Positions 14,701 through 31,543 of a stretch of 64,000 nt of DNA are shown here, one piece after another. A program made the position numbers and the translations under genes. The notes beneath the pieces were generated by a model. The model saw only the letters and a program-made list of their open reading frames with translations, searched no databases and was not told where the DNA came from. The DNA lies in the NCBI RefSeq assembly GCF_002163625.1, contig NZ_CP020892.1:992001-1056000 (forward strand), written 5' to 3'. Origin of the DNA: Pseudomonas sp. M30-35 (GTDB lineage: Bacteria > Pseudomonadota > Gammaproteobacteria > Pseudomonadales > Pseudomonadaceae). Numbering within the stretch: the stretch's first letter is position 1; each line of letters starts with the position of its first letter.

Positions 14701-14809
14701 GCTAGAGGTGCTGGACAATGAAACCAAGAGCCGGGCATTTGCGTTGGCGATTTTGAAGTTGATTAAGTCGGCATCTGGTTTTGATACAAATTTACAGCGC
14801 GACGCGTGA
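11612..14809 (+). CDS. hsdR: type I restriction-modification system, endonuclease/translocase subunit HsdR
   Basis: A 1065-aa protein. The N-terminal PD-(D/E)xK nuclease has D147 (NPRLDLVLF) and E161-L-K163 (ATLELKSEF). The SF2 motor follows, with Walker A in SAGSGKSNS (K328), DEAH at D438 (IADEAHSSQTG), YYAFTATPKAKTLELF, and the later helicase motifs (VMIAANKYQTGFDQP, LSRLNRTFP). The C-terminal helical region ends normally. It translocates DNA and cleaves unmodified DNA in complex with HsdM and HsdS. It is separated from rhuM-fic by 44 bp that carry its own SD (AAGGAG). The locus appears functional: all three subunits are full length. Confidence 0.95.
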   Translation: MADSREIQFQQDIIDALSAQGWLVGTASAYDRHTALYTEDFLGYFKEAWPERWDKFAKANPNDPEGVLVQKLVRELEQSGTLDVLRHGFKLPAVKVELCSFKPDHGMNPDTLKRYQCNRLRVVPEVSYSPHARDKASGGQSYNPRLDLVLFVNGIPTATLELKSEFKQSVENAKRQYRDDRPVKDPLTRKPEPLLTFKRGALVHFAVGQNEVAMTTKLAGKDTFFLPFNLGSEEGGAGNPMPADDSQYATSYLWQRLFQPDAWLKVLGRFLHLEKKTSEAFDGTQVTKETMIFPRYHQWEVVNKLIDTTRTEGPGKRYLIQHSAGSGKSNSIAWSAHQLSSLYDDAGQRLFNSVIVVTDRTVLDSQLQKTIYQFEHAQGVVKPITRDVGNQSKSEQLAEALAEQTRIIIVTIQTFPALFDALDKYPKLASGRYAVIADEAHSSQTGSSASKLKSILGSDVLEGEEISAEELLDAAVQARQPNERISYYAFTATPKAKTLELFGRPADPSIPASSSNKPEAFHLYSMRQAIEEGFILDVLRNYTTYSTAWKIAHPDGEDDEVDSKKARMKLARWVRLHPYNINQKVEVIVEHFRANIRHLLNGQAKAMVVTSSRQEAVRYQLAMKAYVQQMGYGDVHPLVAFSGSVLPDEVIPEEVTENSSLLNAGLNGRDLAAAFDTQDFNVMIAANKYQTGFDQPKLCAMYVDKKLQGVDCVQTLSRLNRTFPAKETFILDFFNEPQDILDAFLPYYTKAELNDVTDPQIIYDLQKTLDAEGIYYWTEVEAFALAFFDPKATASKLSYYCAPAKERFAKRYAFSQEARQHALDFKRTAEANGDSAGLKKAEHALKEAGEQVDQLDLFRKNLQSFVRLYEFLSQIVPYEDPELEQLCVYAKHLYPLLRIDRLQEDDVDVGELQLTHYRLSKRAEHQLRLSEDPGEYGLDPATAVGSGKAHDPEKKRLSEIIDALNDIFGAEVSDDDQLQFLTGIAQRISRQEDVMAQVNSHSVEQVMHGLFPKRVVDTVLDAMTDNEKMSLEVLDNETKSRAFALAILKLIKSASGFDTNLQRDA

Positions 14810-14837
14810 CTGCTAGCCATACGGATAGGGAATAAAG

Positions 14838-15749
14838 ATGGCGATTCCGGATTTTCAAAGTGTAATGCGCCCCGTACTTGCAACTGTGCAGAGCGGGGCG
14901 CCTCTGCCGCTTAACGAGTTGCGAGAACGTGTGGCTGATCAGTTCCAGCTGACTGACGAAGAGCGCAAGGAGCGCCTGCCTTCCGGGCAGCAGACGGTGA
15001 TGAATAACCGTGTCGGTTGGGCGCGTACTTACCTGAATAAAGCAGGTCTGCTGACGATACCAAGCAAGGGCATGGTGCAGATCACCGCGCGAGGGCTGGA
15101 CGCTTTAGCCAATGGCCCCGAGCGCATTACTGTAAGCTGGTTGAAGCAGTTTCCTGAGTTCGCGGATTTTCATACCGCTAAACCCCAGGCAGCTGATGTA
15201 CCGCCGATGGTTGAGCTTGATAGCGCTGAGACCACACCAGACGAGCAGTTGGCCGAGGCGCATCAGGCGCTGTTGCAGTCGCTGGTTGACGAGTTGTTGG
15301 TTCAGGTTCGAGCCGCGACACCGAGTTTCTTTGAGCAGTTGGTGGTCGATTTAATGATCGCCATGGGCTATGGCGGCTCCCGCAAGGAAGCTGGTAAAGC
15401 AACTCAGGCAACCAACGACGATGGGATCGACGGGATCATCAAGGAAGATAAGCTTGGCCTCGACGTAATTTATCTGCAGGCCAAGCGCTGGACTAACACG
15501 GTGCATCGCCCGGAAATCGACAAATTTATTGGCGCGTTAACCCGCCAACGCGCGCGCAAGGGCGTGTTTATCACCACCTCTGATTTTTCCCAAGGCGCCC
15601 GTGATGCTGCTCTGAGTTTAGATATCAAAGTGGTCTTGGTTGATGGTGTGGAGCTGGCGAGCTTGATGGTAGAAAACAATCTTGGGGTGAGCGTTAAGCA
15701 GGTCTACCAAGTGAAGCAGATCGACAGTGATTACTTTGCTGGGGAGTAA
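14838..15749 (+). CDS. Mrr-type restriction endonuclease
   Basis: A 303-aa protein with an N-terminal winged-helix Mrr_N domain (residues ~1-100, including GQQTVMNNRVGWARTYLNKA) and a C-terminal Mrr catalytic domain. The latter shows FFEQLVVDLMIAMGYGG, DDGIDG (D198) and LQAKRW (Q214-x-K216), the D-QxK variant of the PD-(D/E)xK core used by Mrr nucleases, then GVFITTSDFSQGA. Mrr enzymes cut modified, usually methylated, DNA. It starts 28 bp after hsdR, probably in the same transcript. Together they could restrict both unmodified and foreign-modified DNA. Confidence 0.92.
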   Translation: MAIPDFQSVMRPVLATVQSGAPLPLNELRERVADQFQLTDEERKERLPSGQQTVMNNRVGWARTYLNKAGLLTIPSKGMVQITARGLDALANGPERITVSWLKQFPEFADFHTAKPQAADVPPMVELDSAETTPDEQLAEAHQALLQSLVDELLVQVRAATPSFFEQLVVDLMIAMGYGGSRKEAGKATQATNDDGIDGIIKEDKLGLDVIYLQAKRWTNTVHRPEIDKFIGALTRQRARKGVFITTSDFSQGARDAALSLDIKVVLVDGVELASLMVENNLGVSVKQVYQVKQIDSDYFAGE

Positions 15750-16983: not shown

Positions 16984-17226
16984 TTAAGCCAGCTGCAACT
17001 CCACTGTGATTTTCCTTGCTTGGGCTAGAGACGGCTCAGGGTATGCATCAAGGCCCATATTGATGCGTTTCTTGGTTACAGGGTGGTAGTAGTTAAAATT
17101 CCATAGCTTAGAGCCATTAGTTCTCACTCGCATTTGAAGGCCGTCGCCATCAACCAGAACGCAATCCTTCTCTAAAGGCTTGGCGGTTCTGATCTTGAGT
17201 TCAGAAAGGCAGTAGCTTGAGCGCAC
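16984..17226 (-). pseudogene. truncated P4-type tyrosine integrase (arm-binding domain only)
   Basis: An 80-codon frame from GTG 17226 reading SELKIRTAKPLEKDCVLVDG, then GLQMRVRTNGSKLWNFNYYH and MGLDAYPEPSLAQARK. This is the N-terminal DUF4102 arm-type DNA-binding domain of P4-like integrases. It ends after KITVELQLA with no core-binding or catalytic domain, and the sequence further left shows no continuation. It points away from the ssrA 3' end repeat at 17393, 167 bp away, exactly where such integrases sit. It marks an older element integrated at the same site, and the restriction genes to the left may be its cargo. Confidence 0.82.
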
Positions 17227-17392: not shown

Positions 17393-17418
17393 TGGTGGAG
17401 CCGGGGGGATTTGAACCC
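17393..17418. repeat. attL, 26-bp copy of the ssrA 3' end
   Basis: Perfect 26-bp match to 31157-31182; it begins TGGTGGAGCCGGGGGG and continues through the T-arm-like end. On the minus strand it is the last 26 nt of tmRNA including CCA. The flanks of the two copies differ, so this is the crossover core of a site-specific integration. Confidence 0.92.
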
Positions 17419-17523
17419 GTTTTCAGCGCTGTCCGTTGCTGACCTATTTTAGTCAAAGCCAGTCATTCTCTGGCATTCGCTTTTATCCAGTTGGTCAACG
17501 CTGTGCATCATTGGCATTTGATT

Positions 17524-17543
17524 TCGACACTTTTTCGACACCT
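17524..17543 (+). repeat. 20-bp direct repeat, left copy (possible integrase arm site)
   Basis: TCGACACTTTTTCGACACCT, identical to 31072-31091. Each copy is itself two TCGACAC units 11 bp apart. The copies lie about 105 bp inside attL and 65 bp inside attR in the same orientation, where arm-type integrase sites would be expected. Confidence 0.65.
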
Positions 17544-17647
17544 TTCTTTCTTTGCCCAATGGTTGACCTGTAGTGTCATTATGATGTTATCTGTCTAAGC
17601 TGATCATGTTAGTCCTTACCAGCAATCCAGTTCTTGAGGGAAATGTT

Positions 17648-17851
17648 ATGCCAATTTATGTTGCCCCAGGTGTAGAGGTTGGCCGCAACGGAGGGTCTTT
17701 CCAAGAAGTCTCTATGAATACACAGACTCATACAGTAATTACACGGTATGGTCGATACTGCACTATTCGAGACTACGAAAAAGCACCGCCAACCAGCAAG
17801 CCTAACCGTCACTGGTTTCAGATTTATAGAACGCCTGATAATACTGAATAG
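17648..17851 (+). CDS. small hypothetical cargo protein, 67 aa
   Basis: Starts MPIYVAPGVEVGRNGGSFQE at ATG 17648 with GAGGGA seven bases upstream; a longer in-frame start at 17606 has no SD. The opening (xYVAPGxxxxNGG) recalls short proteins such as YjzC, and the remainder (RYGRYCTIRDYEKAPPTSKP, WFQIYRT) has no domain I recognise. It lies just inside attL on the plus strand, convergent with the large GHKL-nuclease gene. Function is unknown. Confidence 0.6.
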   Translation: MPIYVAPGVEVGRNGGSFQEVSMNTQTHTVITRYGRYCTIRDYEKAPPTSKPNRHWFQIYRTPDNTE

Positions 17852-17870
17852 TATTGGTGCATAAAAAAAT

Positions 17871-17900
17871 GAATGCGCTCTTTTTGTTTGGAGCGCATTT
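17871..17900. terminator. bidirectional terminator between convergent cargo genes
   Basis: Stem AATGCGCTC (17872-17880) and GAGCGCATT (17891-17899) with an A-run before and T-rich sequence after. It serves the 67-aa gene on the plus strand and the GHKL-nuclease gene on the minus strand. Confidence 0.65.
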
Positions 17901-17922
17901 TAAATAATAACTTGTCTTGAAG

Positions 17923-19929
17923 CTATGTAGCTAACGTCTCGGTCTGCGCTTGTAAGTTGTTGAGTAGGATGTTTTTATTAAGCTTATCAAGTTCTAATGA
18001 TTCTCTTTCGATTTTTAAATTATCAAGAAAGTGATTGTTTCTTAATTCAAAATCATCGAGTATTGTGTACCAGTTTTTAACATATCTTTTCATTCTTGGA
18101 TCGTCAGAAACTAGCCCCATTTCACCTTTTAGTATGTGGTTGTTTATCCTGCTTTCTATCTCTGAATCTTGGTCAGATATTTTTCTTCCCACAAGGATTA
18201 ACTCAACATGCATATGCCCGCTTGAGAATTCAGGGAATTTCTTTATTAAGGCAGCATAATCATCTAGCTGTCTAAGATGCTTGATGTTTAAGGAAATGCT
18301 TGGCCTTTTTATTTCTATAATAACGCAGCGATAATATTTTCTCCCGGAGGAGTCTATTGAAGGTATCTTTCTTGCTAAGAATAAGTCAGGCTGCCGTTGT
18401 GAGATTATAACCCCATCTCTTTCTTCTTCATCTAGGTCGTCTTCGTTGATGGTTTCGATGCCTCTGACTGTGTCACGTATTCCTTTTGATAGCTTTGTAA
18501 AGGACGCTTCTTCTGCACCTAGGGTTTCGTAGGCTGGACCAAATAGCCATGTATTATTTTCAATTACGCTTTGAAGATCAGGGGTTTCAAGAATCTCAAG
18601 ATAATGTTTGTTCATTATCTCTCTAAGTTGGTGGACTGCAACTTGTCTTTTGTAAAGTATCTCAATGGTTGATATTACATTTTCAAGTTTAATTGACTTT
18701 ATTTGGCGAGCAAGTTTTTCTGTTGAATCTTGATCGAGGTCTAAGGTACTTTCCAAAATATCAAGCAGCGCGTCGTTCTCATTTGATATGAGCAGTCGAT
18801 CTAATAACCTAATAAGTATTTTCTTTTGTTTCTTTTGTAGTGTGTTGAATACAGATGGGTCGGCTAGATATATAGATTTTACTGTGCTTTTTACCTTGGT
18901 ACTTCTCCATTTGGCTTCATGGGTGTCTAACTTGGAGTAGTCAGGGAATATGCCATCTTTTTCGAACTTATCAATCTGAATGTCAGCGAATTTTTTTAAG
19001 AAATCATCATAAATATCTTGTGTTATGGCGTTGAGGTCTTTCTGTAAGCTTCTCCAGGTTTTGCAGTTAGGGTTGAAGCTGCTTGAAAGAAATGTATCGT
19101 TGTTTTCTTCGAACTCATTAGCCCATTCTGAAATTATATAAATGCTTGTGTAAAAATTGGGCTTGTTGTTTAAGCTGCTGAGTTCTTTGTGAACATTTGA
19201 CCCTACGCTGGTCATTAAGTATGTATATGATTTTTCCGAGCTAGGCTTCTCAGTCCAGCGAATAACCTTTATTACAAAATCCTGTCCTTCCGTACTGATT
19301 TTTTTTTCAGTAATTTCGTGTGCGGGAATCTCAATTGGTTTTCCGTTGAGTAAAAGGCTTTTGTCTTTGTTAAGGGCTAAGTACCACCCGAACTCAATAG
19401 ACATTAAATTCGCAAGCTCTGGCTCAGCGGGTAAATTTTTTGTAAAGTTAAAAAGTTCAACACAGGTTCCTTGGCACTCTGATGATAGCAGGGCGTGTTG
19501 ATCTTCTTTTGCTATGCCTTGAATGTTGTAATTTGCCAGGTTGGCAGAATTAATTGTTATGACAGCATCGCCATCATTTTTGTTCCGCGTGTGCCAACGG
19601 GCTTCATTACAAAGTACGTGAAATGCTAACCGGCCTCTTCCATGCGACCCATGCTGGCTGGCTCTTCCGAGCTTGGATGATTCATTAAACTTCCCGAAAT
19701 TATTATCTGCGTATAGAAACTCTATGCCTGTGCCATTGTCCAGCACAGAGATTTGTTCTGGTCCGCCAGCCTCATTCGAGGCGTAATTAACTTTTACTGA
19801 TGATGAATTAGCGTCAAACCCATTCCAAGCAAGTTCAAATATTGGTTGCCAAGGATCAGTTTTTTTAAAGTGTTTCTTAATGCCGAGTCCTGTAATATTT
19901 GTAGAGGCAGAAAGCTTGTAGTTAGACAT
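17923..19929 (-). CDS. GHKL ATPase fused to a Shedu-like (DUF4263) PD-(D/E)xK nuclease
   Basis: A 668-aa protein from ATG 19929 (MSNYKLSAST); an upstream in-frame TTG at 20043 is less credible. The N-terminus is a GHKL ATP-binding domain with ELAWNGFDA (E32, N36, D39), DNGTG (64-68) and the lid GSHGRGR (94-100). The middle ~300 residues are helical and unassigned. The C-terminus has ENNTWLFGP near 457-465, PDLFL (D515) and IIEIKRP (E539, K541), a D-x(n)-ExK core in the style of the Shedu family. The GHKL domain resembles MORC/MutL-like ATPases that occur with restriction systems. I infer an ATP-gated nuclease for anti-phage defence or superinfection exclusion. It is strongly AT-rich and sits as prophage cargo. 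Confidence 0.78.
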   Translation of the reverse strand: MSNYKLSASTNITGLGIKKHFKKTDPWQPIFELAWNGFDANSSSVKVNYASNEAGGPEQISVLDNGTGIEFLYADNNFGKFNESSKLGRASQHGSHGRGRLAFHVLCNEARWHTRNKNDGDAVITINSANLANYNIQGIAKEDQHALLSSECQGTCVELFNFTKNLPAEPELANLMSIEFGWYLALNKDKSLLLNGKPIEIPAHEITEKKISTEGQDFVIKVIRWTEKPSSEKSYTYLMTSVGSNVHKELSSLNNKPNFYTSIYIISEWANEFEENNDTFLSSSFNPNCKTWRSLQKDLNAITQDIYDDFLKKFADIQIDKFEKDGIFPDYSKLDTHEAKWRSTKVKSTVKSIYLADPSVFNTLQKKQKKILIRLLDRLLISNENDALLDILESTLDLDQDSTEKLARQIKSIKLENVISTIEILYKRQVAVHQLREIMNKHYLEILETPDLQSVIENNTWLFGPAYETLGAEEASFTKLSKGIRDTVRGIETINEDDLDEEERDGVIISQRQPDLFLARKIPSIDSSGRKYYRCVIIEIKRPSISLNIKHLRQLDDYAALIKKFPEFSSGHMHVELILVGRKISDQDSEIESRINNHILKGEMGLVSDDPRMKRYVKNWYTILDDFELRNNHFLDNLKIERESLELDKLNKNILLNNLQAQTETLAT

Positions 19930-20056
19930 TTTCTTTCTTGATCCTTTTTGCGCTAATTCAATTGGAGTTTCTAGCTTTTGAGGTTGGTCATAAGTTTTTA
20001 TTTTTAATATATATTGCCCATTGCTAAGAATGGCAGCTTTCAAAAGGTGACTGTTT

Positions 20057-20626
20057 TCAATCTCGGTGGCTTAACCCAACTCTTGCTCTGCAATTCCTGC
20101 CTTCAATGCTGCCTGCTTTGTGTGGCCAGCAAGCCCTGTCTTTCATGCTCGGCTTTTGCTCAACAATTGTGATTTTCGTCTTCTCTGGGGGCTTTGGGGC
20201 TTCTATCGGTATTTTGGGGTCTTCGAATTTCAAAACGTTATCCGCGCCGCGTCGTACGTAATTTCGGTCGTTGAAGGAAACTTGTTTAACCTGGGCGGAT
20301 TTTGACTCGTTTTGAGACGGTGGGGTGAAGGTCACTGTTTCTCGGGCGCGATCACGTTTTGCCTGTTGTTCCACGACCCGATCCCAGTTTTTGGAATCGC
20401 TGCTTACGCTTCTGCTACGCTGCTTCTCATAGTCTGGCGTAGGTCTTACGTAGTTTGGGTTCGTGAAGTTCTTTGCCAAGTCGCCCATGCGGGCTGAGTC
20501 GGTAAAGGCAAGTCCTCCTAGCGTCACGCAGGTTCCGATCACACCGGCTATGATCAGTCCTTTTGTGTTTCCCCTACGTGCCCTTGTCCGTATGTAGTCT
20601 GGGGCATCGTTCCAATCAGCCTTCAT
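20057..20626 (-). CDS. hypothetical single-TM protein in the repressor transcript
   Basis: A 189-aa protein from ATG 20626, with GGGAGAG upstream. It has a short cytoplasmic N-terminus (MKADWNDAPDYIRTRARRGN), one TM helix (GLIIAGVIGTCVTLGGLAF), then ~150 residues of polar, Pro- and Lys-rich sequence (TFTPPSQNESKSAQVKQVSF, EAPKPPEKTKITIVEQKPS) ending with Cys-containing KDRACWPHK and GRNCRARV. Probably a type II membrane protein with a periplasmic extension. It follows the repressor gene on the same strand at 58 bp. I do not recognise the family. Confidence 0.65.
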   Translation of the reverse strand: MKADWNDAPDYIRTRARRGNTKGLIIAGVIGTCVTLGGLAFTDSARMGDLAKNFTNPNYVRPTPDYEKQRSRSVSSDSKNWDRVVEQQAKRDRARETVTFTPPSQNESKSAQVKQVSFNDRNYVRRGADNVLKFEDPKIPIEAPKPPEKTKITIVEQKPSMKDRACWPHKAGSIEGRNCRARVGLSHRD

Positions 20627-20684
20627 TTCTTGCTCTCCCTTGTCCCTCGGGCATACCAACGTTTAGCTAATTCTTGTGTTATCG

Positions 20685-20957
20685 CTATCCCGCGTTTTGA
20701 CTGGTCAAGTTTCGGTTGGCCTCGTCGTACTCTGGGCTTGTCTGACCTTTATCTGGCATGACTTCACCAGTCATGAGCCACCACCGATAGTTCGGGTATA
20801 GCTTCCCAAGCTGGTCAATTTCTTCTGCGCTAATTCTGGCTCGCCCTCTCTTAATGCTCTGCCACCTCACGTATTCCTTGCTGTTTACCTCGGCAAGGTC
20901 TTTGAGGCTGGTTGCATCAAGCAATTTAAGAACTCTATCAAGCATTGATTCGCTCAT
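20685..20957 (-). CDS. phage repressor-like HTH protein
   Basis: A 90-aa protein starting MSESMLDRVLKLLDATSLKD, with LAEVNSKEYVRWQSIKRGRA, RISAEEIDQLGKLYPNYRWW and LMTGEVMPDKG. This resembles small CI/Cro-like regulators of inoviruses, in which the helix-turn-helix is followed by the recurring phrase LGxLYPxYRWWLMTGE. It is divergent from the excisionase gene across a ~115-bp region rich in TGGA/TCCA repeats, so it is the likely lysogeny repressor. The frame also offers a start at 20969, four residues earlier. Confidence 0.8.
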   Translation of the reverse strand: MSESMLDRVLKLLDATSLKDLAEVNSKEYVRWQSIKRGRARISAEEIDQLGKLYPNYRWWLMTGEVMPDKGQTSPEYDEANRNLTSQNAG

Positions 20958-20972
20958 TACCAAAAACAATCG

Positions 20973-21043
20973 TATGGACTATTGCCATAATCCGGTTATT
21001 TATGGATACTGTCCATATGGATTTATTCCATATTGATAGTCCA
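20973..21043. promoter_or_regulatory. divergent control region with repeated TGGA/TCCA operators
   Basis: The region between repressor and excisionase contains TGGACTAT at 20975-20982 and its exact inverse ATAGTCCA at 21036-21043. Between them lies a compact dyad ATGGATACTGTCCAT (21002-21016) and CCATATGG (21013-21020). It is AT-rich and should hold both divergent promoters. The repeated half-sites are good candidate operators for the repressor at 20685-20957. Confidence 0.6.
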
Positions 21044-21072
21044 ACAATGACCAACATAGTGCAGGAAAGATC

Positions 21073-21297
21073 ATGGATGTGGAAGGAACTGACCTCTCTT
21101 TGAAAGACCTTATTTCTCCGCCGCCGCTTATGCCTTGGCGCCAGTTTGCAAATTGGATTCGTATGGCTGATGACCATCCCACTGTTTGGGGCTGGATTCG
21201 CAACGGTTATCTGCCTTCTCGCAAAGTAGGTAAGCACATGATGGTCAATGTGTCGTTGCTTGCTAAACAGCTTCTCGATGAAGAGTTCACCGAGTGA
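21073..21297 (+). CDS. excisionase-like DNA-binding protein
   Basis: A 74-aa protein (MDVEGTDLSLKDLISPPP) with a winged-helix pattern: PWRQFANWIRMADDHPTVWG then WIRNGYLPSRKVGKHMMVNV and SLLAKQLLDEEF. The phrase ...GxLPSxKxGxxxxVN is typical of MerR-like excisionase/Cox proteins in Pf-type phages. First gene of the rightward phage operon, opposite the repressor. It probably directs excision with the integrase and may also antagonise the repressor. Its TGA overlaps the GTG start of the next small gene. Confidence 0.78.
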   Translation: MDVEGTDLSLKDLISPPPLMPWRQFANWIRMADDHPTVWGWIRNGYLPSRKVGKHMMVNVSLLAKQLLDEEFTE

Positions 21298-21458
21298 GCA
21301 GGGCAGATCAGCAATTCAAGCTGCGGCTACCCGCTGCCTTGCGTGCTCAAGTTGAACAAGCCGCAAAGGCATCACGCCGCTCTATAAATGCAGAGTTAAT
21401 CATTCGCCTAGAAGCCAGCTTCGTACAGGTCAAAGAAAGTCAGGAGGACGCCCAGTGA
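21294..21458 (+). CDS. Arc-family ribbon-helix-helix DNA-binding protein, 54 aa
   Basis: A 54-codon frame from GTG 21294, overlapping the excisionase stop (GTGA), ending TGA 21456-21458. It reads SRADQQFKLRLPAALRAQVE and then QAAKASRRSINAELIIRLEAS, the Arc/MetJ pattern: a beta strand with QFKLRLP, helix A, then RRSINAELIIRLE for helix B. Arc-like proteins are dimeric repressors. Its position in the early region suggests control of phage gene expression. Confidence 0.8.
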   Translation: MSRADQQFKLRLPAALRAQVEQAAKASRRSINAELIIRLEASFVQVKESQEDAQ

Positions 21459-21497
21459 TCTACATGACCCACGGACGACTAGGGGAGGGCATGAGCT

Positions 21498-21812
21498 ATG
21501 ACGCTCAACCGCTACCTGCATCAGCCTCACGCCGAGGACTGCGCCTGCTCTGTATGTTGGACTTTGGCCGAAATGGCAAAGCCCGCTCTTTACCAGTCCA
21601 CACCCTGCAACGATTGCAAACCCCATGGGCTGCCGTATCTCGTCAATGGCCGTTGGTACTGCCAGACGGCTTACAAATGCGCGAAACACACGCCCAGCAA
21701 ACGACCTCCGAAGTATTGGAGCGTTATTCACGACTCGGGCAAGCCGGTGCCTTACGTCCCGCTGTGGGGTGTCACCAATGACTTTTTTGGGAGCGGGCAT
21801 AACGTGGACTGA
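21498..21812 (+). CDS. Cys-rich hypothetical phage protein, 104 aa
   Basis: A 104-aa protein MTLNRYLHQPHAEDCACSVC... with Cys/His spacing that suggests a zinc-binding fold: H-x4-C-x-C-x2-C near the N-terminus, C-x2-C in STPCNDCKPHG, and later GRWYCQTAYKCAKH. A second overlapping frame (21455-21781) runs through the same DNA, but its composition (QPLPASASRRGLRLL) looks random. I chose this frame for the regular Cys motifs. Function unknown; early-region position. Confidence 0.65.
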   Translation: MTLNRYLHQPHAEDCACSVCWTLAEMAKPALYQSTPCNDCKPHGLPYLVNGRWYCQTAYKCAKHTPSKRPPKYWSVIHDSGKPVPYVPLWGVTNDFFGSGHNVD

Positions 21813-21876
21813 GCTAGCGATAGTCAGTACCTGCGTCACGATCAACCTCAGCATTGTTTGGGCGATTTTCCGATGA
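21778..21876 (+). CDS. very small membrane protein, 32 aa (candidate)
   Basis: ATG 21778 opens a 32-codon frame MTFLGAGITWTELAIVSTCV then TINLSIVWAIFR, essentially one hydrophobic helix. It overlaps the end of the Cys-rich gene in another frame, and its TGA overlaps the ATG of the next gene (ATGA at 21873-21876). The tight overlaps on both sides favour a real gene. No clear SD is present. It could be a small phage inner-membrane protein. Confidence 0.45.
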   Translation: MTFLGAGITWTELAIVSTCVTINLSIVWAIFR

Positions 21877-22199
21877 TCACTTTACAAATCATTTTGGCGG
21901 TCATGTTTTGCGTTGCTGCCTTCGAGATCTGTCGCAGTGAGATTGCTAAATCAAAGTCAGCCTTTCGCACGGCTCGCTATCTAGTCGCACTGTTATGGCA
22001 CTGGTCGATTCCCTTTGTACTGGGCTGTCTTGCCGCTTCGGTGGTTTCGCTTATGGGCATTCAGCAAGGGCTTATGCAGGTAACCGATGTGCTGGATGAG
22101 GCCATTCAACAAGCCGTACAAGCCTGCGGGGTAGCCGATCAACCGCCTGACAGTAGATCGCCGTCTGAGTCCGGGACAGCTTCACCGTCGCGGGCTTAG
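21873..22199 (+). CDS. phage membrane protein, two TM helices
   Basis: A 108-aa protein from ATG 21873 (MITLQIILAVMFCVAAFEIC). The first TM helix is at the N-terminus, the second at WSIPFVLGCLAASVVSLMG, with a basic loop between them (RSEIAKSKSAFRTARYL). A hydrophilic tail is rich in Ser and Pro (QPPDSRSPSESGTASPS). It is followed by a rho-independent terminator at 22217. Similar small bitopic or two-TM proteins are common in inovirus early regions; no specific role can be given. Confidence 0.65.
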   Translation: MITLQIILAVMFCVAAFEICRSEIAKSKSAFRTARYLVALLWHWSIPFVLGCLAASVVSLMGIQQGLMQVTDVLDEAIQQAVQACGVADQPPDSRSPSESGTASPSRA

Positions 22200-22216
22200 G
22201 GGGCGAAACGGGATAA

Positions 22217-22238
22217 CAAGGGCCGGGCCCTTGGTTTT
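22217..22238 (+). terminator. rho-independent terminator ending the early phage operon
   Basis: Perfect 8-bp stem CAAGGGCC (22217-22224) and GGCCCTTG (22226-22233), followed by GTTTT. It separates the early regulatory genes from the ssDNA-binding and structural genes. Confidence 0.7.
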
Positions 22239-22398
22239 AAACAGGCAACACAACTCACGAATTTAGCGACTTAACAGAAACGCCGCTTCGAACTGAAAAC
22301 CACCCACCGGAAAAACTGAAAGTTAACCGGTGCGGGAAAACTCAGCCCGAAGAAAGGCAAAACCGCGCAATCAAGCGCAATTCAAAGAGGTGGTAAAC
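22239..22398. other. phage intergenic region with CACCGG/CCGGTG dyad
   Basis: About 160 bp without a gene between the early terminator and the ssDNA-binding gene. It contains an inverted repeat CACCGG (22305-22310) and CCGGTG (22327-22332) with a 16-nt loop. It should hold the promoter for the structural operon and is one candidate location for the phage replication origin. Confidence 0.4.
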
Positions 22399-22776
22399 AT
22401 GGCTCGTTCAACTATGGAAGTAGCATTTCTCGGCACTCAACGTTTCGACGGTGAGAACGGCCAGAAGTACATCAAGGTTTTCTACGGTGATGAACCAGAC
22501 GGCAAAACCGAGCACGGCTTGTCGATCATCGGTATGGCTGCTGACGACGATGTCGCTGATGAAATCTTTCACGCTGGCTCCAAGTTCGAACCCCTGCAGC
22601 TTGTGCGCATCACCTTCGATGTCGCTCGCGGTGGCCAGAACAAGGGCAAAAATCTAGCCCTGCACATCGAAGAAGTAGAACGCCCAGGCACTCGCAACGC
22701 ACCAACCCCGTCCACCACTGGCGCGACCAAAGCATCAGATTCGGCCAAACCATCCGACCCGACGAAAGCCAGCTAA
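22399..22776 (+). CDS. inovirus ssDNA-binding-type protein (DUF1293-like)
   Basis: A 125-aa protein from ATG 22399 (MARSTMEVAFLGTQRFDGEN) with AAAGAGGTGG upstream. The first ~95 residues look like a small OB-fold protein (KYIKVFYGDEPDGKTEHGLS, FEPLQLVRITFDVARGGQNK). The tail is low-complexity, rich in Thr, Ser, Lys and Pro. Position and size match the ssDNA-binding (gene V-like) protein of Pf-type phages, which coats the packaged strand before assembly and can repress translation. Assigned from position and general shape rather than a decisive motif. Confidence 0.6.
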   Translation: MARSTMEVAFLGTQRFDGENGQKYIKVFYGDEPDGKTEHGLSIIGMAADDDVADEIFHAGSKFEPLQLVRITFDVARGGQNKGKNLALHIEEVERPGTRNAPTPSTTGATKASDSAKPSDPTKAS

Positions 22777-22785
22777 TCGGAGGGC

Positions 22786-22977
22786 ATGACCGTGCTCAAA
22801 GGTGATCGCGTTATCTGTGACCTCTGCCAGAGCGATATGGGCCAGTTACACAACTTGCCTAGTGATTTCGTCGACTCGGCACCTGATATGCGCGTTCCAC
22901 CTCACTACGCGGTCTGCCCGGTTTGTTTCGAGTACTCGGTTCCTCTGGAACCCGAACAAGACACTCAACCGCTTTAG
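22786..22977 (+). CDS. small zinc-ribbon-like phage protein, 63 aa
   Basis: MTVLKGDRVICDLCQSDMGQ ... HYAVCPVCFEYSVPLEPEQ. Two C-x2-C knuckles 34 residues apart suggest a zinc ribbon. It starts 10 bp after the ssDNA-binding gene and is followed at 13 bp by a 36-codon membrane protein gene, so it belongs to the structural operon. Function unknown. Confidence 0.65.
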   Translation: MTVLKGDRVICDLCQSDMGQLHNLPSDFVDSAPDMRVPPHYAVCPVCFEYSVPLEPEQDTQPL

Positions 22978-22989
22978 GGGCTTCGGGAT

Positions 22990-23100
22990 ATGGACGCATA
23001 CCTGCTGAACATCACTCTCGGCGACCTTTGGGCGCTCCAATTCATACAAGGCGTCGTGATGGTCATGGCCCTTGGACTGATCCACGGACACCAGAGGTAA
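22990..23100 (+). CDS. 36-aa phage membrane protein
   Basis: ATG 22990 to TAA 23100 encodes MDAYLLNITLGDLWALQFIQ then GVVMVMALGLIHGHQR, a short N-terminus followed by one TM helix and a basic C-terminus. Two such tiny membrane proteins directly before the major coat gene occupy the position of the end-cap proteins VII and IX of Ff phages, so a minor capsid or assembly role is plausible. No sequence identity to those is claimed. Confidence 0.6.
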   Translation: MDAYLLNITLGDLWALQFIQGVVMVMALGLIHGHQR

Positions 23101-23105
23101 CGACT

Positions 23106-23231
23106 ATGGCTTTCACTTGGGGGCAATACCTCGTTATCGCTGGGTTCTTGGTAGGTGCCCTAGGTATTGGCGTCGCTTGGGGCAACTTCCGGCTCGGCTG
23201 GAAAGAAATGATAGACGCATCAACCAACTGA
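23106..23231 (+). CDS. 41-aa phage membrane protein, possible minor coat protein
   Basis: ATG 23106 to TGA 23231 encodes MAFTWGQYLVIAGFLVGALG then IGVAWGNFRLGWKEMIDAST. One glycine-rich TM helix is followed by a basic/amphipathic tail, as in minor end-cap proteins of filamentous phages. The start is 6 bp after the preceding stop, and it precedes the major coat gene by 11 bp. Confidence 0.65.
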   Translation: MAFTWGQYLVIAGFLVGALGIGVAWGNFRLGWKEMIDASTN

Positions 23232-23242
23232 GGTAATTCAAC

Positions 23243-23545
23243 ATGGAAAAAACACAACTGGCCGTCTCTATCGGCCAAGCCAACAACAGCAACGGGACCA
23301 GTGTCGGTAAAGCACTGGGCGGCAAAAAGGCGCTCGCCATGCTCACCGTTGTTTCCGCTTCGCTTACTGCTGCATCCGCTAACGCAGCCATTGATGTTCC
23401 GGCTGAACTGCTAGCCATCTTCACCGATCTGGCAATTGCTTTCGGCACGCTCATGGCAGCCGGTGCGGTGCTGTTCGGTGTGATTCGCGGCGGCATTGCA
23501 CTGTTCAAAATCGCTGGTCGTGTATTCAGCGCTGCAGGCGCTTAA
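23243..23545 (+). CDS. inovirus major coat protein precursor
   Basis: A 100-aa precursor. A long leader (MEKTQLAVSIGQANNSNGTS...ALAMLTVVSASLTAASANA) has a signal-peptidase site at ANA/AID. The mature ~49-residue protein has an acidic start (AIDVPAELLAIFTD), a single TM helix (FGTLMAAGAVLFGVIRGGIA) and a basic C-terminus (LFKIAGRVFSAAGA). This acidic-hydrophobic-basic layout is that of filamentous-phage pVIII. Thousands of copies would form the virion tube, inserted in the inner membrane before assembly. Confidence 0.88.
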   Translation: MEKTQLAVSIGQANNSNGTSVGKALGGKKALAMLTVVSASLTAASANAAIDVPAELLAIFTDLAIAFGTLMAAGAVLFGVIRGGIALFKIAGRVFSAAGA

Positions 23546-23566
23546 CCCTAACCCGGAGGCTGATAG

Positions 23567-25159: not shown

Positions 25160-25161
25160 TC

Positions 25162-25533
25162 ATGCCTTGGCTTATTGGGTTCTTTAGTCGTTTCTTTCTT
25201 CGGTTCTTCGCCGGTGCGGGCAAATTCCTGTTGGGGCTTCTCGCGCCGCTGATCACGCCGGTGATGCAGTTCATTGCTTCTTTCTTCAAAAAGCTGGGCA
25301 TTCTCGCCCTGATCGTGGCGGCCATCTATACCGCTATCACTGTGCTTTCCGGTGGTATCTCGCAACTAATCAGCACCCTTACGGGCGGCTTTCCAAGTGA
25401 CTTGCTTGTCTTCGGTCGCATGTTTTTGCCCGACAACCTCTCGTTCTGCATAGCGGTACTGGTCACGGCTCGGGTCAAGTCGCTGATCTTCTATTGGGTT
25501 TCCAAGCTCTCCGAAAAACTCATTCACACCTAG
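25162..25533 (+). CDS. DUF2523-type minor coat protein (pVI-like)
   Basis: A 123-aa, strongly hydrophobic protein MPWLIGFFSRFFLRFFAGAG with TM helices at FLLGLLAPLITPVMQFIAS, LALIVAAIYTAITVLSGGIS and a C-terminal segment (FCIAVLVTARVKSLIFYWVS). It is placed between the adsorption protein and the Zot ATPase, as pVI-like DUF2523 proteins are in Pf-type phages. It starts 2 bp after the preceding stop. Expected to sit with pIII at the virion tip and take part in release. Confidence 0.85.
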   Translation: MPWLIGFFSRFFLRFFAGAGKFLLGLLAPLITPVMQFIASFFKKLGILALIVAAIYTAITVLSGGISQLISTLTGGFPSDLLVFGRMFLPDNLSFCIAVLVTARVKSLIFYWVSKLSEKLIHT

Positions 25534-25542
25534 GGACTCGCC

Positions 25543-26643
25543 ATGGCCGTTTATATCGTCACCGGCAAGCTCGGTGCGGGCAAAACATTGCTGTGTATTT
25601 TGAAGATTCTCGACTATCTCAAAGCCGGTCGCCGGGTGGCTGTGAACGTCGATGTGAAAATGGACAAGCTCTGCAGACCCGGTAACAAGCACTCACGCCT
25701 TGTTCGCCTGCCTGACCTGCCATCAGCCGAAGACTTAACCGGCCTCGGCTTTGGCTTAGAAAAATACGATGAAGAAATGTTCGGCGGGATCTTTCTCGAT
25801 GAAGCCGGTGTTTGGCTCAACTCGCGGGACTGGAACTCGAACGGGCGTACCGACTTACTCAAGTTCTTTCTGTTCCTGCGTAAACGCCGTTGGGATCTGT
25901 GGCTGTGCGTTCAAAACGTCAACGTCATTGATAAACAGATCCGTGAATCGATCGCTGAACACGTCGTTTACATCAACCGTTGGGACAAGCTGAAAGTGCC
26001 TTTCTTTCTGCGTTTGCCGGGGCGGCTTCTCACGCTCGGGATCTGGAAAGGCAACCTGCCAAAGATGCATCAGGCCATCGTCAAATACGGCCCCAAATTC
26101 AACTCGCCCAAGGTCGATGACTGGTTCTATCAGGGCAAAGAGTTTTACAGCTTTTACGACACCACGCAGGAATACAACAAGGACTACGAAAAAGGCTCGT
26201 ACTCCATGTTGCCGCCCGGTTACTGGCGTCGCCACCTGCCGACTTCCCCTCGCAACATGGGGTTCTTTATGCGCACTACAAAAATCTTCTTCCGCCGTAC
26301 TCGTACGCTCAACGCATTGTTTCTCGGAGGCGTCATTGCGCTATGTATTGCTGTTCCCGTTTTTGCTGCTGTGGCTCTGGTTAGCTATCCGTCTGTACAA
26401 GCACCTGATGCTTTGCAAACACTCCGAACGCCCGATGCATCCAAGCTGGGCGATCAATTCGGGTCGTTACGTATTGCTACTTATGGTCGTTTATCTGGCC
26501 GGGTTCTCTACGTTTTTGTGGATGAATCAGGCACCCGGATAACAACAGAAGACCTAATCGCCAAAAACATCACCGTCAAAGACCGCGGCCCAAGGGAAGC
26601 GCTGTTGGTGCGTGATGACGACTTTCTCTCTGTTTACCGCTGA
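25543..26643 (+). CDS. zot: Zot-family assembly ATPase (pI)
   Basis: A 366-aa protein. The Walker A motif VTGKLGAGKT lies at the extreme N-terminus (K14), with Walker B as GGIFLDEAGVWL, and SRDW and LRKRRWDLWLCVQNVNVIDK follow, all typical of the zonula occludens toxin domain. A TM helix lies near residue 265-285 (LFLGGVIALCIAVPVFAAVA), followed by a periplasmic tail. In filamentous phages this inner-membrane ATPase drives virion extrusion together with the secretin. It starts 9 bp after the DUF2523 gene and is followed by the secretin after 9 bp. Confidence 0.93.
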   Translation: MAVYIVTGKLGAGKTLLCILKILDYLKAGRRVAVNVDVKMDKLCRPGNKHSRLVRLPDLPSAEDLTGLGFGLEKYDEEMFGGIFLDEAGVWLNSRDWNSNGRTDLLKFFLFLRKRRWDLWLCVQNVNVIDKQIRESIAEHVVYINRWDKLKVPFFLRLPGRLLTLGIWKGNLPKMHQAIVKYGPKFNSPKVDDWFYQGKEFYSFYDTTQEYNKDYEKGSYSMLPPGYWRRHLPTSPRNMGFFMRTTKIFFRRTRTLNALFLGGVIALCIAVPVFAAVALVSYPSVQAPDALQTLRTPDASKLGDQFGSLRIATYGRLSGRVLYVFVDESGTRITTEDLIAKNITVKDRGPREALLVRDDDFLSVYR

Positions 26644-28051: not shown

Positions 28052-28071
28052 AGTGGCCAATAGTGGTCAAT
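28052..28071 (+). repeat. tandem 10-bp repeat abutting the replication gene start
   Basis: AGTGGCCAAT (28052-28061) directly followed by AGTGGTCAAT (28062-28071), one mismatch. The second unit overlaps the ATG of the replication gene at 28070, and there is no usual SD before it. It could bind the replication protein or act as a translational operator. Confidence 0.5.
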
Positions 28072-29365
28072 GCTGGAGAAACGCAAATTGAAACCACAAG
28101 ATCAAATCAGGTTGAACAACGACGGTTACGAGTCTGCAACCGGTAGGCTGTTTGCTGACCGTGGAAACGGTCGAATCACAGACCTTTCAAAAGTCCGTTT
28201 GCTTCGTTGTGGTGTGGATACGGTTCGCCAGTTGTATCGGGGGCTGATCCGTCCGCACATCATGGCGCTGTTTGAGGTGCCGGGATCAATTGTCGATTTC
28301 GCTGGGCAACGTTGGCACTCGGGACGGGTAGGGCGTGACTCTGGCTATCAGTACAAGCTGCAAAACGCTGACCTTGGCCTGATTTTGCTGATCAAGAACT
28401 TCAATGCCAAGCTTGAAAGCGCTGGGCCTCACTTGAAAATTGAGGTTTCACCGCACGCAATCGACAACCTGTCACCTGAACGTCTGCAAGCACGCTTGGA
28501 CTACTACGCCGAGCACATTCTGAGTAACGTTGAAATCAATCAGTGCGCCGTCCATTTGGCCTTAGACCTTCAAGGCTGGACACCTCCAACCGATTTGGTT
28601 GCCCGCATGCACTGCCGTGCCCGGACTCACCGTGATATCTCGGGCATCAATGAAATCAACTGGGCCACTAAGTCCAGTGTGTATGGACGTGGCGAAACGT
28701 CGATGTTTGGCTCAGCTAACGGTGTTCAGTTGTGTATCTACAACAAAACCGAACAAGCCCGAGCTACTGACAAGCTCGACTATTGGGAAAGCGTTTGGAA
28801 GCGTCGTGACAGCTTCGACGATAACGACCCGGACAACTACGACCCAAACCAAGACGTATGGCGCATCGAGCTGCGTTACCACCACTCAATAATCCAGCAA
28901 TTCGCCAGCGGCTCTGTCGATCTGCAAAGCGGCTCAGTTATCGACACCAGTAGCTTTGCGGCGTTCTCTGGCCACTTAGACGGGCTTTGGCGCTATGGGT
29001 TGAGCCAATTCAAATTGCTATGCCGTCCGGGCTATTTCGAGCCGTTCTGGACGCTCATTCGTGAGGACGTAAAAGTGGATATTGAAGCCGATTCGCTACT
29101 CGATGACACCGAGTACAAGCGTTACTACAAGACCTCCCGTGGCTTTTCGGGTAAGAACGTTGAGCTTTTCTTGGGAAACTTCGTAAGCCTACTGGCAAGG
29201 GAGCAGGTGGGCGCAAAAAAGGCGTTTGATCGTCTGAAAGAATGGGAATGCTGGCCGGTAATACGCGATCACTACGCGGCCAAGGGTATGAGCGAACGGG
29301 ATCTGTATAAGCACATCAAGGCGTTACTTGAGGAACGTCATGTTCGTTGGGGTAGGGCGGTTTAA
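28070..29365 (+). CDS. phage replication initiation protein (gene II/X type)
   Basis: A 431-aa protein resembling the replication initiators of Pf-type inoviruses. It contains INQCAVHLALDLQGW, MHCRARTHRDISGINEINWA, a GETSMFGSANGVQLCIYNKT segment and VWRIELRYHHSIIQQF. It should nick the double-stranded form and start rolling-circle replication. The ATG at 28070 has no clear SD. A TTG at 28088 preceded by GGAGAA (28075-28080) is an alternative start. The stop overlaps the integrase start (TAATG). Confidence 0.82.
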   Translation: MLEKRKLKPQDQIRLNNDGYESATGRLFADRGNGRITDLSKVRLLRCGVDTVRQLYRGLIRPHIMALFEVPGSIVDFAGQRWHSGRVGRDSGYQYKLQNADLGLILLIKNFNAKLESAGPHLKIEVSPHAIDNLSPERLQARLDYYAEHILSNVEINQCAVHLALDLQGWTPPTDLVARMHCRARTHRDISGINEINWATKSSVYGRGETSMFGSANGVQLCIYNKTEQARATDKLDYWESVWKRRDSFDDNDPDNYDPNQDVWRIELRYHHSIIQQFASGSVDLQSGSVIDTSSFAAFSGHLDGLWRYGLSQFKLLCRPGYFEPFWTLIREDVKVDIEADSLLDDTEYKRYYKTSRGFSGKNVELFLGNFVSLLAREQVGAKKAFDRLKEWECWPVIRDHYAAKGMSERDLYKHIKALLEERHVRWGRAV

Positions 29366-30360
29366 TGGCGATTGATCAACAGCCAGATGGTCGCTGGAAA
29401 GTCGATATAGAGCCAGTCAAGGGCAAGCGCTTTCGCAAGACCTTCAAGACCAAAGGCGAGGCTCAACGGTTCGTCTCGTACTGCAGGGCTAAGGTTGTCG
29501 AAACGCCGGTTTGGAACCCTCGTCCCACTGATGCTCGGCGTCTTACTGGGCTTATTGACGCTTGGTTTGAGCTGCACGGGCACTCATTGCGCGATGGTCA
29601 ACGTCGCAAGGCCAAACTCGATCTGGTGGCTAAGCGCTTTCGCAACCCATTGGCAGCTAAGTTAGATCCGCAGGTCTACGCCAACGACCGACGCAAGCGG
29701 CTCGCTCAAGGCGTATCACCCAAGACGCTGAACAATGAACTTGGCTATCTGCGCTCTGTGTACAACGAATTGTCTAGGCTGGGAGTTATCACCTATGCAA
29801 ACCCACTCGCCCAGGTCAAACCGCTGCAGATCCAAGAGCGTGAGCTTTCATGGCTGACCTCTGAGCAAATAACCGAGTTGCTGCAGGCAATTAGCAGTGG
29901 TTGTGATAATCCGCATGTCGAGATCATCACACTGATCTGCTTGGCTACAGGTGCTCGATGGTCTGAGGCTGAGAAACTCAAGTCTACTGGGCTGCGTAAC
30001 GGGGTGATTACATTCAGCGGAACCAAGAGCGGTAAGGTTCGCTCTGTGCCTATCACCAAAGAGCTAGAAGCCAAGATCGTCCGTCATTGGAAGCAACACG
30101 GACAACCTAACTCGTCCATCACTTCGTTTCGGCGTGCTTTGGCCAGAACTTCAATCAAGCTCCCGAAAGGGCAGGCCGCCCACTCCCTGCGGCACACCTT
30201 CGCCAGCCACTTCATCCAGAACGGCGGAAATATCCTGACCCTGCAGAAGATCCTTGGTCACTCCAGCTTGGCTATGACCATGCGCTATGCACACCTTGCG
30301 CCGGATCATCTGCAGGATGCTGTGCTACTCGGTCCGCTTATTTTGCGAGAGGATTATTGA
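29365..30360 (+). CDS. phage tyrosine integrase
   Basis: A 331-aa tyrosine recombinase. An N-terminal beta-rich arm (MAIDQQPDGRWKVDIEPVKG) and a SAM-like core-binding domain are followed by the catalytic domain with Arg in ICLATGARWSEAEKL, HSLRHTFASHF, ILGHSSLAMTMRYAHL (Tyr nucleophile) and a short tail. All catalytic positions are present. It is the last gene of the phage, about 800 bp from attR, and overlaps the replication gene by one base. It should catalyse recombination at the ssrA 3' end with the excisionase at 21073. It is unrelated to the P4-type remnant at 16984. Confidence 0.93.
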   Translation: MAIDQQPDGRWKVDIEPVKGKRFRKTFKTKGEAQRFVSYCRAKVVETPVWNPRPTDARRLTGLIDAWFELHGHSLRDGQRRKAKLDLVAKRFRNPLAAKLDPQVYANDRRKRLAQGVSPKTLNNELGYLRSVYNELSRLGVITYANPLAQVKPLQIQERELSWLTSEQITELLQAISSGCDNPHVEIITLICLATGARWSEAEKLKSTGLRNGVITFSGTKSGKVRSVPITKELEAKIVRHWKQHGQPNSSITSFRRALARTSIKLPKGQAAHSLRHTFASHFIQNGGNILTLQKILGHSSLAMTMRYAHLAPDHLQDAVLLGPLILREDY

Positions 30361-31156: not shown

Positions 31157-31182
31157 TGGTGGAGCCGGGGGGATTTGAACCC
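31157..31182. repeat. attR, 26-bp ssrA 3' end
   Basis: Copy of 17393-17418 that is continuous with the body of ssrA. On the minus strand it forms the T-arm-like and acceptor end with the encoded CCA (31157-31159). Confidence 0.92.
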
Positions 31183-31543
31183 CCGTCCGCCAGTTCTCCG
31201 CTGTCGGTTCTACATGCTTAGCCGTGTCTATTAAGTTAACCCTTGGCCGCCCGACGGGCAGGGTGCTTTGGGCGAGTTGTGTAAGTTTTAGCCACTTCGT
31301 CCACAACGTACTACGCGGCGATTCTGTTCTATATGACAATCATTTCGGGTTTACAGACATCCCCTAATGATTGCTGGAGCCGAAGCTACCAGAAGTGCGA
31401 CTAGGCTGCTTACGCAGCTAGTTGAGCACCGTAATTGTCATCATTGGCAATTATAAAGTTTGCAACAGTGGATTTACGAGTTCTGTTACCCACTCGGCAT
31501 GCCCCTCGAGTTTCGCTACCGGCGTCGAATCCTAATCGGCCCC
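31157..31543 (-). ncRNA. ssrA: transfer-messenger RNA (tmRNA)
   Basis: A 387-nt gene on the minus strand from GGGGCCGATTAGG (31543) to the encoded CCA (31157). The 5' GGGGCCG pairs with 3' CGGCTCC and leaves a G-U at the third pair, the alanine identity element. The tag frame runs from GCC at 31448 to TAA at 31410-31412 and encodes ANDDNYGAQLAA. It rescues stalled ribosomes together with SmpB, encoded at 42950-43429. Its 3' end is the integration site of the inovirus. The regenerated sequence looks intact. Confidence 0.95.

What the first reader, a model, noticed from the sequence alone, without database searches (positions are those of the whole stretch)
17923..19929. GHKL ATPase-Shedu-like nuclease fusion carried as inovirus cargo
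Seen directly: complete GHKL motifs (E32/N36/D39, DNGTG, GSHGRGR) and, 400 residues later, ENNTWLFGP, D515 and E539-x-K541, a PD-(D/E)xK core in Shedu/DUF4263 style. The gene is AT-rich, monocistronic and sits just inside attL of a filamentous prophage next to its own terminator. Known: MORC/MutL-like GHKL ATPases occur in restriction loci, and Shedu nucleases are anti-phage effectors. Inference: a single-protein ATP-gated nuclease protecting the lysogen from other phages. This is the strongest candidate in the window for a little-described system.
Basis: partly seen in the sequence, partly recalled or inferred. Interest (0 to 1): 0.82.

Follow-up and report, generated by a model that had tools for sequence, protein, structure and literature searches.

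The report
Prophage-borne GHKL ATPase–nuclease fusion
A filamentous virus dormant in what looks like a Pseudomonas chromosome carries, next to its own repressor gene, a probable single-protein anti-phage nuclease of a kind already shown to work in another bacterium; the new points are who carries it and where it sits.

Summary
On the minus strand, 17923-19929 encodes a 668-aa protein with complete GHKL ATPase motifs and a C-terminal E-D-ExK nuclease core; E32, N36, D39, E457, D515, E539 and K541 are invariant in 39 of 39 aligned sequences. It lies inside a 13.8-kb Pf-type inovirus integrated in tmRNA, has a terminator, and is AT-rich.

The fusion is not new: it has the architecture of paraMORC3 (2008) and of Shedu type I-D, whose member VcSduA is experimentally anti-phage. 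Pf prophages are already known to carry defence genes. Direct SduA_C and PADLOC matches are absent; the Shedu link is by profile-profile comparison.

What I add: the gene probably follows a Pf4r-like repressor in one transcript rather than standing alone. In IMG/VR, relatives sit behind CI-like repressors in 21 of 23 contigs (15 of 16 distinct genes; one clade), a rex-like position. Other inoviruses of the genus carry other cargo in this slot (PADLOC hits in 9 of 20 proteins I picked), some in short elements with little room for morphogenesis genes. Verdict: new member of a known kind, unusual carrier.

The parts
17923..19929 (-). 668-aa GHKL ATPase / PD-(D/E)xK nuclease fusion (P0001), the subject of the finding
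   Evidence: phrog_6203 (unknown function) E 1.9e-79 over residues 16-642
19522..19851 (-). GHKL ATPase core, residues 27-136 (HATPase_c_3); E32, N36, D39, DNGTG, HGSHGRGR
   Evidence: Pfam E 4.4e-14; motifs invariant in 39 of 39
18010..18747 (-). C-terminal nuclease region, residues 395-640: E457 in ENNTWLFGP, D515, E539-x-K541
   Evidence: hhalign prob 94.7 to GHKL-SduA_C fusions, 99.6 to four distant relatives, reversed controls 0.1-0.2
17872..17899 (-). intrinsic terminator directly downstream of the gene
   Evidence: 9-bp stem then U-run, z -3.39, 0 of 200 shuffles as stable
20057..20659 (-). 200-aa phage protein between repressor and cargo
   Evidence: phrog_7381 (unknown function) E 7.8e-9; tblastn match in 18 of 48 related regions, 4 of them over only about 40 residues
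20685..20969 (-). immunity repressor, Pf4r/Pf6r type
   Evidence: PDB 6wnm Pf4r E 5.7e-22, 6x6f Pf6r E 1.2e-20; phrog_147 E 5.1e-26; tblastn match in 45 of 48 related regions
21073..21297 (+). HTH protein, excisionase-like by position (inferred)
   Evidence: HTH_17 E 0.0013, below cut-off; phrog_1864 (unknown function) E 6.5e-28
25543..26643 (+). morphogenesis protein (pI/Zot family)
   Evidence: phrog_1675 E 1.1e-115
28070..29365 (+). putative replication initiator, used as inovirus marker
   Evidence: phrog_1159 (unknown function) E 9.5e-207; replication initiation family only E 0.061; function inferred
29365..30360 (+). tyrosine integrase
   Evidence: phrog_1 integrase E 8.9e-76
17393..17418 (.). 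attL, 26-bp copy of the tmRNA 3' end
   Evidence: reverse complement equals the last 26 of the 28 bases of the Pf-tmRNA attP printed in PMC7549136
31157..31182 (.). attR, inside the tmRNA 3' end
17521..17543 (.). repeat near attL (partner 31069-31091, 96% identical), perhaps an integrase arm site (inferred)
31157..31543 (-). tmRNA gene, integration target

Best explanation
The gene encodes a single-protein anti-phage nuclease of paraMORC3 / Shedu type I-D architecture, carried as lysogenic-conversion cargo by a Pf-tmRNA inovirus and made in the lysogen from the repressor side of the prophage. Inferred working: two copies dimerise when the N-terminal GHKL domains bind ATP; the middle region closes as a clamp on DNA; closure releases or positions the C-terminal PD-(D/E)xK domains, which cut incoming phage DNA without killing the host. 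Shown here: domain content, invariant catalytic residues, prophage location, terminator, position behind a Pf4r-like repressor. Inferred: co-transcription, dimer clamp, ATP gating, DNA cutting, anti-phage effect. Not known: what triggers it.
For: GHKL domain and invariant E-D-ExK core in 39 of 39 aligned sequences. C-terminal profile aligns with five GHKL fusions found by PF14082 (prob 94.7, reversed control 0.2). Relatives show weak PD-(D/E)xK matches: HSDR_N_2 in 6 of 8 tested, best E 8.2e-5, and PDDEXK_9 E 1.1e-4 in one, all below cut-off; HSDR_N_2 in 4 of 39, best 0.0064. VcSduA, same architecture: E27A and K557A abolish protection, growth curves fit direct restriction with host survival (PMC12137116 section 12). 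Prophage location behind a Pf4r-like repressor. CI-like repressor upstream on the same strand in 21 of 23 viral contigs. Pf accessory genomes are a published home of defence genes (PMC11878078; PMC11341870).
Against: No PF14082 match in the protein; 1 of 39 relatives at E 0.024, below cut-off. No PADLOC match. In distant relatives the nuclease part matches HSDR_N_2, PDDEXK_9 or Cas4 models as well as or better than SduA, so 'Shedu' is not the only possible label. Against 15 classic SduA proteins the profile comparison gives prob 23, against subsets 1.3-16. Structure not tested. VcSduA not compared. None of 48 other inovirus regions carries this gene at tblastn E <= 1e-4. I know of no phage phenotype for this subfamily. 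In 3 of 4 plasmid regions viewed a methyltransferase lies near the relative, so some may belong to R-M systems.
Confidence: 0.74

Rival explanations
1. It is a component of a restriction-modification system that needs a partner methylase or helicase, as first proposed for paraMORC proteins, and is an orphan here or works with the type I R-M genes at 6021-14809.
For: Iyer et al. link MORC and paraMORC proteins to R-M operons (passages). Distant relatives lie near methyltransferases on 3 of 4 plasmid regions viewed: Deinococcus, Psychrobacter, Streptomyces, not Mesorhizobium. A type I R-M island lies outside attL (by reading of the ORFs). In one genus relative (L046) an HsdM-like ORF follows (by reading).
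Against: The gene is inside att while the R-M genes are outside. The three ORFs found between attL and the repressor in the window include no methylase. VcSduA works alone. Phage-borne relatives have a repressor as upstream neighbour in 21 of 23 contigs.
Confidence: 0.12
2. It serves the phage itself: a DNA-processing or superinfection-immunity factor for the inovirus, or a regulator of co-resident prophages, rather than general defence.
For: Sits beside the immunity repressor. The Pf6 KKP cargo has a double role in prophage control and defence (PMC11341870, passages).
Against: Relatives occur in other viral contigs, on plasmids and in chromosomal regions without an obvious prophage. None of 48 other inovirus regions has it, so it is not needed for inovirus replication in general.
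Confidence: 0.08
3. It is a DNA repair protein (MutL-like), as some database entries name relatives.
For: Weak match to MutL TIGR00585, E 2.2e-4, 20 bits against a cut-off of 180; GHKL part resembles MutL, topoisomerase VI and MORC structures; some relatives are named DNA mismatch repair protein.
Against: Sporadic: 11 of 398 genomes of the genus and 7 of 398 of the family sample. Similarity to MutL is confined to the ATPase part; prophage locations do not suit housekeeping.
Confidence: 0.03

Closest known systems
VcSduA, Shedu type I-D of Vibrio cholerae VSP-II (PMC12137116)
   Same: N-terminal GHKL ATPase, C-terminal PD-(D/E)xK nuclease in one polypeptide; key residues at like positions (E27 and K557 there, E32 and K541 here); mobile-element location
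   Different: Carrier is a genomic island, not an inovirus; direct DUF4263 match reported there, none here; sequence identity not measured because its sequence was not obtained
paraMORC3 (Iyer, Abhiman and Aravind 2008, PMC2292703)
   Same: GHKL module with a conserved C-terminal domain bearing E-D-ExK motifs; sporadic, laterally mobile distribution, prevalent in proteobacteria; a subset stands outside R-M contexts
   Different: S5 domain not tested here; inovirus carriage not seen in the passages read
GHKL-SduA_C fusions of about 585 aa in the same bacterial family (L038-L041, L043)
   Same: GHKL plus W-x-[LF]G, R-x-DL, ExKRPS-x-x-L nuclease motifs; hhalign prob 94.7 (C-terminal region) and 96.3 (N-terminal region, no reversed control run)
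   Different: About 81-86 residues shorter; borderline to PF14082 (one of five reaches the cut-off), which P0001 does not match
Classic Shedu SduA
   Same: PD-(D/E)xK core; single-gene system (recalled)
   Different: No GHKL domain; profile comparison with P0001 only prob 23
Defence cargo of Pf prophages: KKP; TA, retron, Kiwa, ShosTA, Gabija, IetAS, PfsE, Avs (PMC11341870, PMC11878078)
   Same: Accessory genes of Pf-type prophages
   Different: No GHKL-nuclease fusion among the eight systems that PMC11878078 lists for its Pf phages (passages)

Membership tests
paraMORC3 | N-terminal GHKL ATPase with complete motifs | tested here: met
   HATPase_c_3 E 4.4e-14; invariant motifs
paraMORC3 | C-terminal domain with E-D-ExK motif | tested here: met
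   E457, D515, E539-x-K541 invariant in 39 of 39
paraMORC3 | that domain has the restriction-endonuclease fold | tested here: inconclusive
   no structure; weak HSDR_N_2 / PDDEXK_9 matches in relatives, below cut-off
paraMORC3 | S5 domain after the GHKL domain | not tested
   no Pfam match there in P0001; no structure available
paraMORC3 | widely sporadic, laterally mobile distribution | tested here: met
   11 of 398 genus genomes, 7 of 398 family genomes; phage and plasmid records, viral contigs
Shedu type I-D (GHKL form) | SduA_C / DUF4263 (PF14082) match | tested here: inconclusive
   no direct match in P0001; 1 of 39 relatives E 0.024; indirect hhalign prob 94.7 through GHKL fusions that PF14082 finds
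Shedu type I-D (GHKL form) | PD-(D/E)xK catalytic residues | tested here: met
Shedu type I-D (GHKL form) | regulatory N-terminal enzymatic domain fused to the nuclease | tested here: met
Shedu type I-D (GHKL form) | homology to VcSduA along the whole length | not tested
   VcSduA sequence not obtained; no protein accession in the passages read
Shedu type I-D (GHKL form) | anti-phage activity dependent on both active sites | not testable with these tools
   needs plaque assays
Pf-tmRNA inovirus | att repeat equal to tmRNA 3' end, with an integrase | tested here: met
   26 of the 28 attP bases in PMC7549136; that the integrase is of the tmRNA type was not tested
Pf-tmRNA inovirus | Pf4r-type repressor and pI/Zot morphogenesis gene | tested here: met

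The most novel reading that the evidence does not exclude
Phages of unrelated kinds (an ssDNA inovirus and dsDNA temperate phages) have separately placed this GHKL-gated nuclease behind their immunity repressor, making it a rex-like lysogen-only defence module. If, like EcSduA, it is activated by DNA ends, an inovirus is the ideal carrier: its circular replicative form and circular ssDNA offer no ends, so the carrier would be exempt without any immunity gene, while tailed phages that inject linear DNA are cut. Tailed carriers would then need a separate exemption, such as shut-off with the repressor at induction.
Probability: 0.25. Interest if true: 0.7.

Novelty: new member of a known kind. 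Interest (0 to 1): 0.42.

Why it matters
It extends a recently tested defence architecture to a filamentous phage and to a subfamily that Pfam's SduA_C and PADLOC 2.0.0 do not flag in this protein, so surveys built on those models can miss it. The repressor-linked position suggests that expression is tied to lysogeny. The inovirus carrier gives a clean test of self/non-self discrimination: a nuclease that spares a circular ssDNA phage but cuts linear tailed-phage DNA would point to end or topology sensing as the trigger of GHKL-type Shedu enzymes, which to my knowledge is open.

Tried and rejected
Direct Shedu assignment by Pfam or PADLOC: no match in P0001. Solved structures: no hit with the single sequence; the profile's 35 hits at E <= 10 fall on the ATPase part (MutL family, topoisomerase VI, MORC, sensor kinases) except two at E 0.58 and 1.3 that look like chance; no nuclease structure is among them. 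Structure prediction: switched off, so no fold search. Closest relatives (70-74% identity; two are named Pseudomonas aeruginosa and one P. citronellolis): genomic context not found; a viral-contig scan with P0008 gave none, and a family-wide genome search gave nothing above 51% apart from the window itself. Rejected: reading the repressor linkage as 15 independent events; the tree puts all 17 CI-linked rows in one clade (100/100), so it is one association plus the separate inovirus case. Caveats: two of 46 rows were dropped as empty (L046, L047), six rows were shortened at the N-terminus because my script looked for ATG only (L150 keeps 32% of columns), and the outgroup has a very long branch. 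L150 shows no single open frame over 500 aa at the match, so that copy may be broken. No background PADLOC rate was measured for the cargo survey; the 20 proteins were large ORFs picked by me, one per element, from 20 of the 27 elements other than the window listed (two of the 27, L096 and L101, have a repeat that is not at a tRNA or tmRNA). One search translated minus-strand loci on the wrong strand; redone.

Full report
OBSERVATION. The gene is on the minus strand, 17923-19929, ATG to stop, 668 aa. In P0001 Pfam finds only HATPase_c_3 (E 4.4e-14, residues 27-136). The gene is single copy. Its GC is 38.2%, that of 19930-31156 51.7%. A terminator follows it (17872-17899).

PROPHAGE. A 26-bp perfect repeat bounds 17393-31182; the right copy is the 3' end of tmRNA. 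Its reverse complement is the last 26 of the 28 bases of the Pf-tmRNA attP in PMC7549136 (passages). Inside are a Pf4r-type repressor (PDB 6wnm, E 5.7e-22), an integrase, and a pI/Zot morphogenesis protein. The putative replication initiator is named by inference: its best PHROG has no function. The order from attL is: an 81-aa plus-strand ORF of unknown worth, then the cargo gene, the 200-aa protein and the repressor (all minus), then the plus-strand phage genes. Gaps of 127 and 25 bp and no predicted minus-strand terminator between them make co-transcription with the repressor likely, so 'monocistronic' is not supported.

WHAT THE PROTEIN IS. Direct evidence for Shedu is weak: no PF14082 match in P0001, 1 of 39 relatives at E 0.024; no PADLOC match in P0001, and E 0.007-0.02 hits to SduA models in 3 of 8 relatives tested. 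Evidence for a nuclease in general is a little better: HSDR_N_2 in 6 of 8 relatives (best E 8.2e-5) and PDDEXK_9 in one, all under cut-off. One phage relative also has a weak Cas4 hit (E 3.5e-4). Searching 248 genomes of the family with PF14082 found 20 with matches (16 over the cut-off), not the window's own genome; among the matches are five proteins of 582-587 aa that start with a GHKL domain, one of which reaches the cut-off. The C-terminal profile of P0001 aligns with these at probability 94.7 (reversed control 0.2), with four distant relatives (one phage, three plasmids) at 99.6, and with 15 classic SduA proteins at only 23, subsets of them 1.3-16. So it belongs with GHKL-nuclease fusions, and through them probably with the Shedu group. 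Iyer et al. described this architecture as paraMORC3 (PMC2292703, passages). VcSduA of V. cholerae was tested: anti-phage, lost in E27A and K557A (PMC12137116, section 12 read whole). I did not obtain VcSduA's sequence, and none of 240 listed proteins has its motif positions by my pattern, so closeness to VcSduA is untested.

WHERE RELATIVES LIVE. In the genus sample, 11 of 398 genomes match: eight full-length including the window's own (one of them at 31% identity), one split into two frames, and two only over 50 N-terminal residues. In the family sample 7 of 398 match, the window's own included. Two Pasteurella phages carry distant relatives, as do 34 plasmid records. A scan of IMG/VR, a collection of viral contigs and so biased to phage carriage, gave with profile A1 23 contigs at 43-48% identity, 16 distinct genes at 95%. 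In 21 of 23 contigs a CI-like repressor lies upstream on the same strand; counted to the start of the match the gap is 37-845 bp in 20 and 1710 bp in one. The exceptions are L146, cut at the gene start, and L018, which by reading of its sequence looks P2-like, with the gene beside an integrase. By cluster this is 15 of 16. That these contigs are tailed phages is inferred; only the Pasteurella phage record viewed is annotated with tail genes. Of eight genus regions fetched, I tested the three that looked repressor-linked by eye, and all three have the CI-like gene (L047-L049); four others (L044, L045, L046, L050) showed no obvious repressor beside the gene, by reading, and L051 was not looked at. 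Five CI-like proteins were compared with solved structures: two match lambda CI, one a C.AhdI HTH protein, two nothing; all 24 were grouped by one profile seeded with two of them. The tree puts the CI-linked rows in one clade, separate from the clade of P0001, so the association is one lineage, and the inovirus case is a second, separate one. The context of P0001's closest relatives (70-74%) is unknown.

THE INOVIRUS CARGO SLOT. The putative replication protein finds inovirus-like elements in 34 of 398 genus genomes, 59 listed places. I fetched 48 regions, leaving out ten fragments and the window's own. None carries the GHKL gene at tblastn E <= 1e-4. In 25 of 48 an att repeat at a tRNA or tmRNA 3' end could be assigned by reading; three regions are cut by contig ends. 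The stretch between repressor side and attL holds largely different genes from element to element, with some shared pairs. Of 20 large cargo proteins that I picked, one per element, PADLOC matches 9 at E <= 1e-5: bSEFIR, RT_V, RT_IV and AriAB, which are named systems, and PDC-S31, PDC-M11A, PDC-M55C, PDC-M49A, PDC-M53A, which are candidates only; 11 of 20 have none. Pfam adds NACHT in two and PIN_8 in one of those 11. No background rate was measured. That Pf accessory genomes carry defence genes is published for P. aeruginosa (PMC11878078, passages; KKP, PMC11341870, passages), so this extends a known pattern to other species of the genus.

MECHANISM. Best reading: ATP-gated dimeric clamp nuclease. 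The dimer and clamp come from a published model of VcSduA, not from mine. The trigger is unknown. EcSduA senses DNA ends (review PMC12904381, passages). If that holds here, an inovirus with circular DNA would be exempt. Against a simple form of this idea, most phage-borne relatives found sit in what look like dsDNA temperate phages, whose own DNA has ends.

NOVELTY. New member of a known kind. Full-text searches for GHKL ATPase/Shedu/DUF4263, MORC/GHKL/anti-phage, paraMORC3, Shedu/SduA, and Pf or inovirus with defence terms listed no title or abstract reporting this fusion in an inovirus; the papers listed were not read in full, and the open-access library lacks most subscription papers.

Noticed in passing
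L083, L084, L085, L103, L108, L113, L116, L117 (oriented coordinates): Eight of 25 delimited related elements are only 5.7-8.8 kb, against 10.8-14.9 kb for the other 17: repressor side, HTH, replication protein and integrase, with only about 1.0-1.6 kb between HTH and replication gene, too little for a usual set of coat and export genes. Cargo includes an AriAB-like protein (L108). They may be inovirus satellites carrying defence genes. Lack of a match to the window's pI/Zot says little, since only 7 of 48 regions match it.
   Followed up: partly
window 6021-15749: Defence island outside attL: type I R-M genes (by reading), with an inserted PDC-S02 protein, a PDC-S23 protein with a Doc/Fic-like part, and a type IV methyl-directed restriction enzyme (mREase_IV, E 2.8e-85).
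   Followed up: partly
window 16984-17226, minus strand: 80-aa remnant of an integrase arm-binding domain (Arm-DNA-bind_3, E 4.1e-14) just outside attL, suggesting an older element at the same place.
   Followed up: no
window 17606-17851, plus strand: 81-aa ORF between attL and the cargo gene without any Pfam match at E <= 1, convergent with it across the terminator.
   Followed up: no
L038-L041, L043: A second type of GHKL-SduA_C fusion of 582-587 aa in five genomes of the same bacterial family, at the edge of PF14082's cut-off.
   Followed up: partly
L018: By reading of its sequence a P2-like viral contig carries a relative next to an integrase.
   Followed up: no
window 54086-54163, minus strand: Pseudomonas sRNA P31 (Rfam RF01676, E 9.1e-8).
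   Followed up: no
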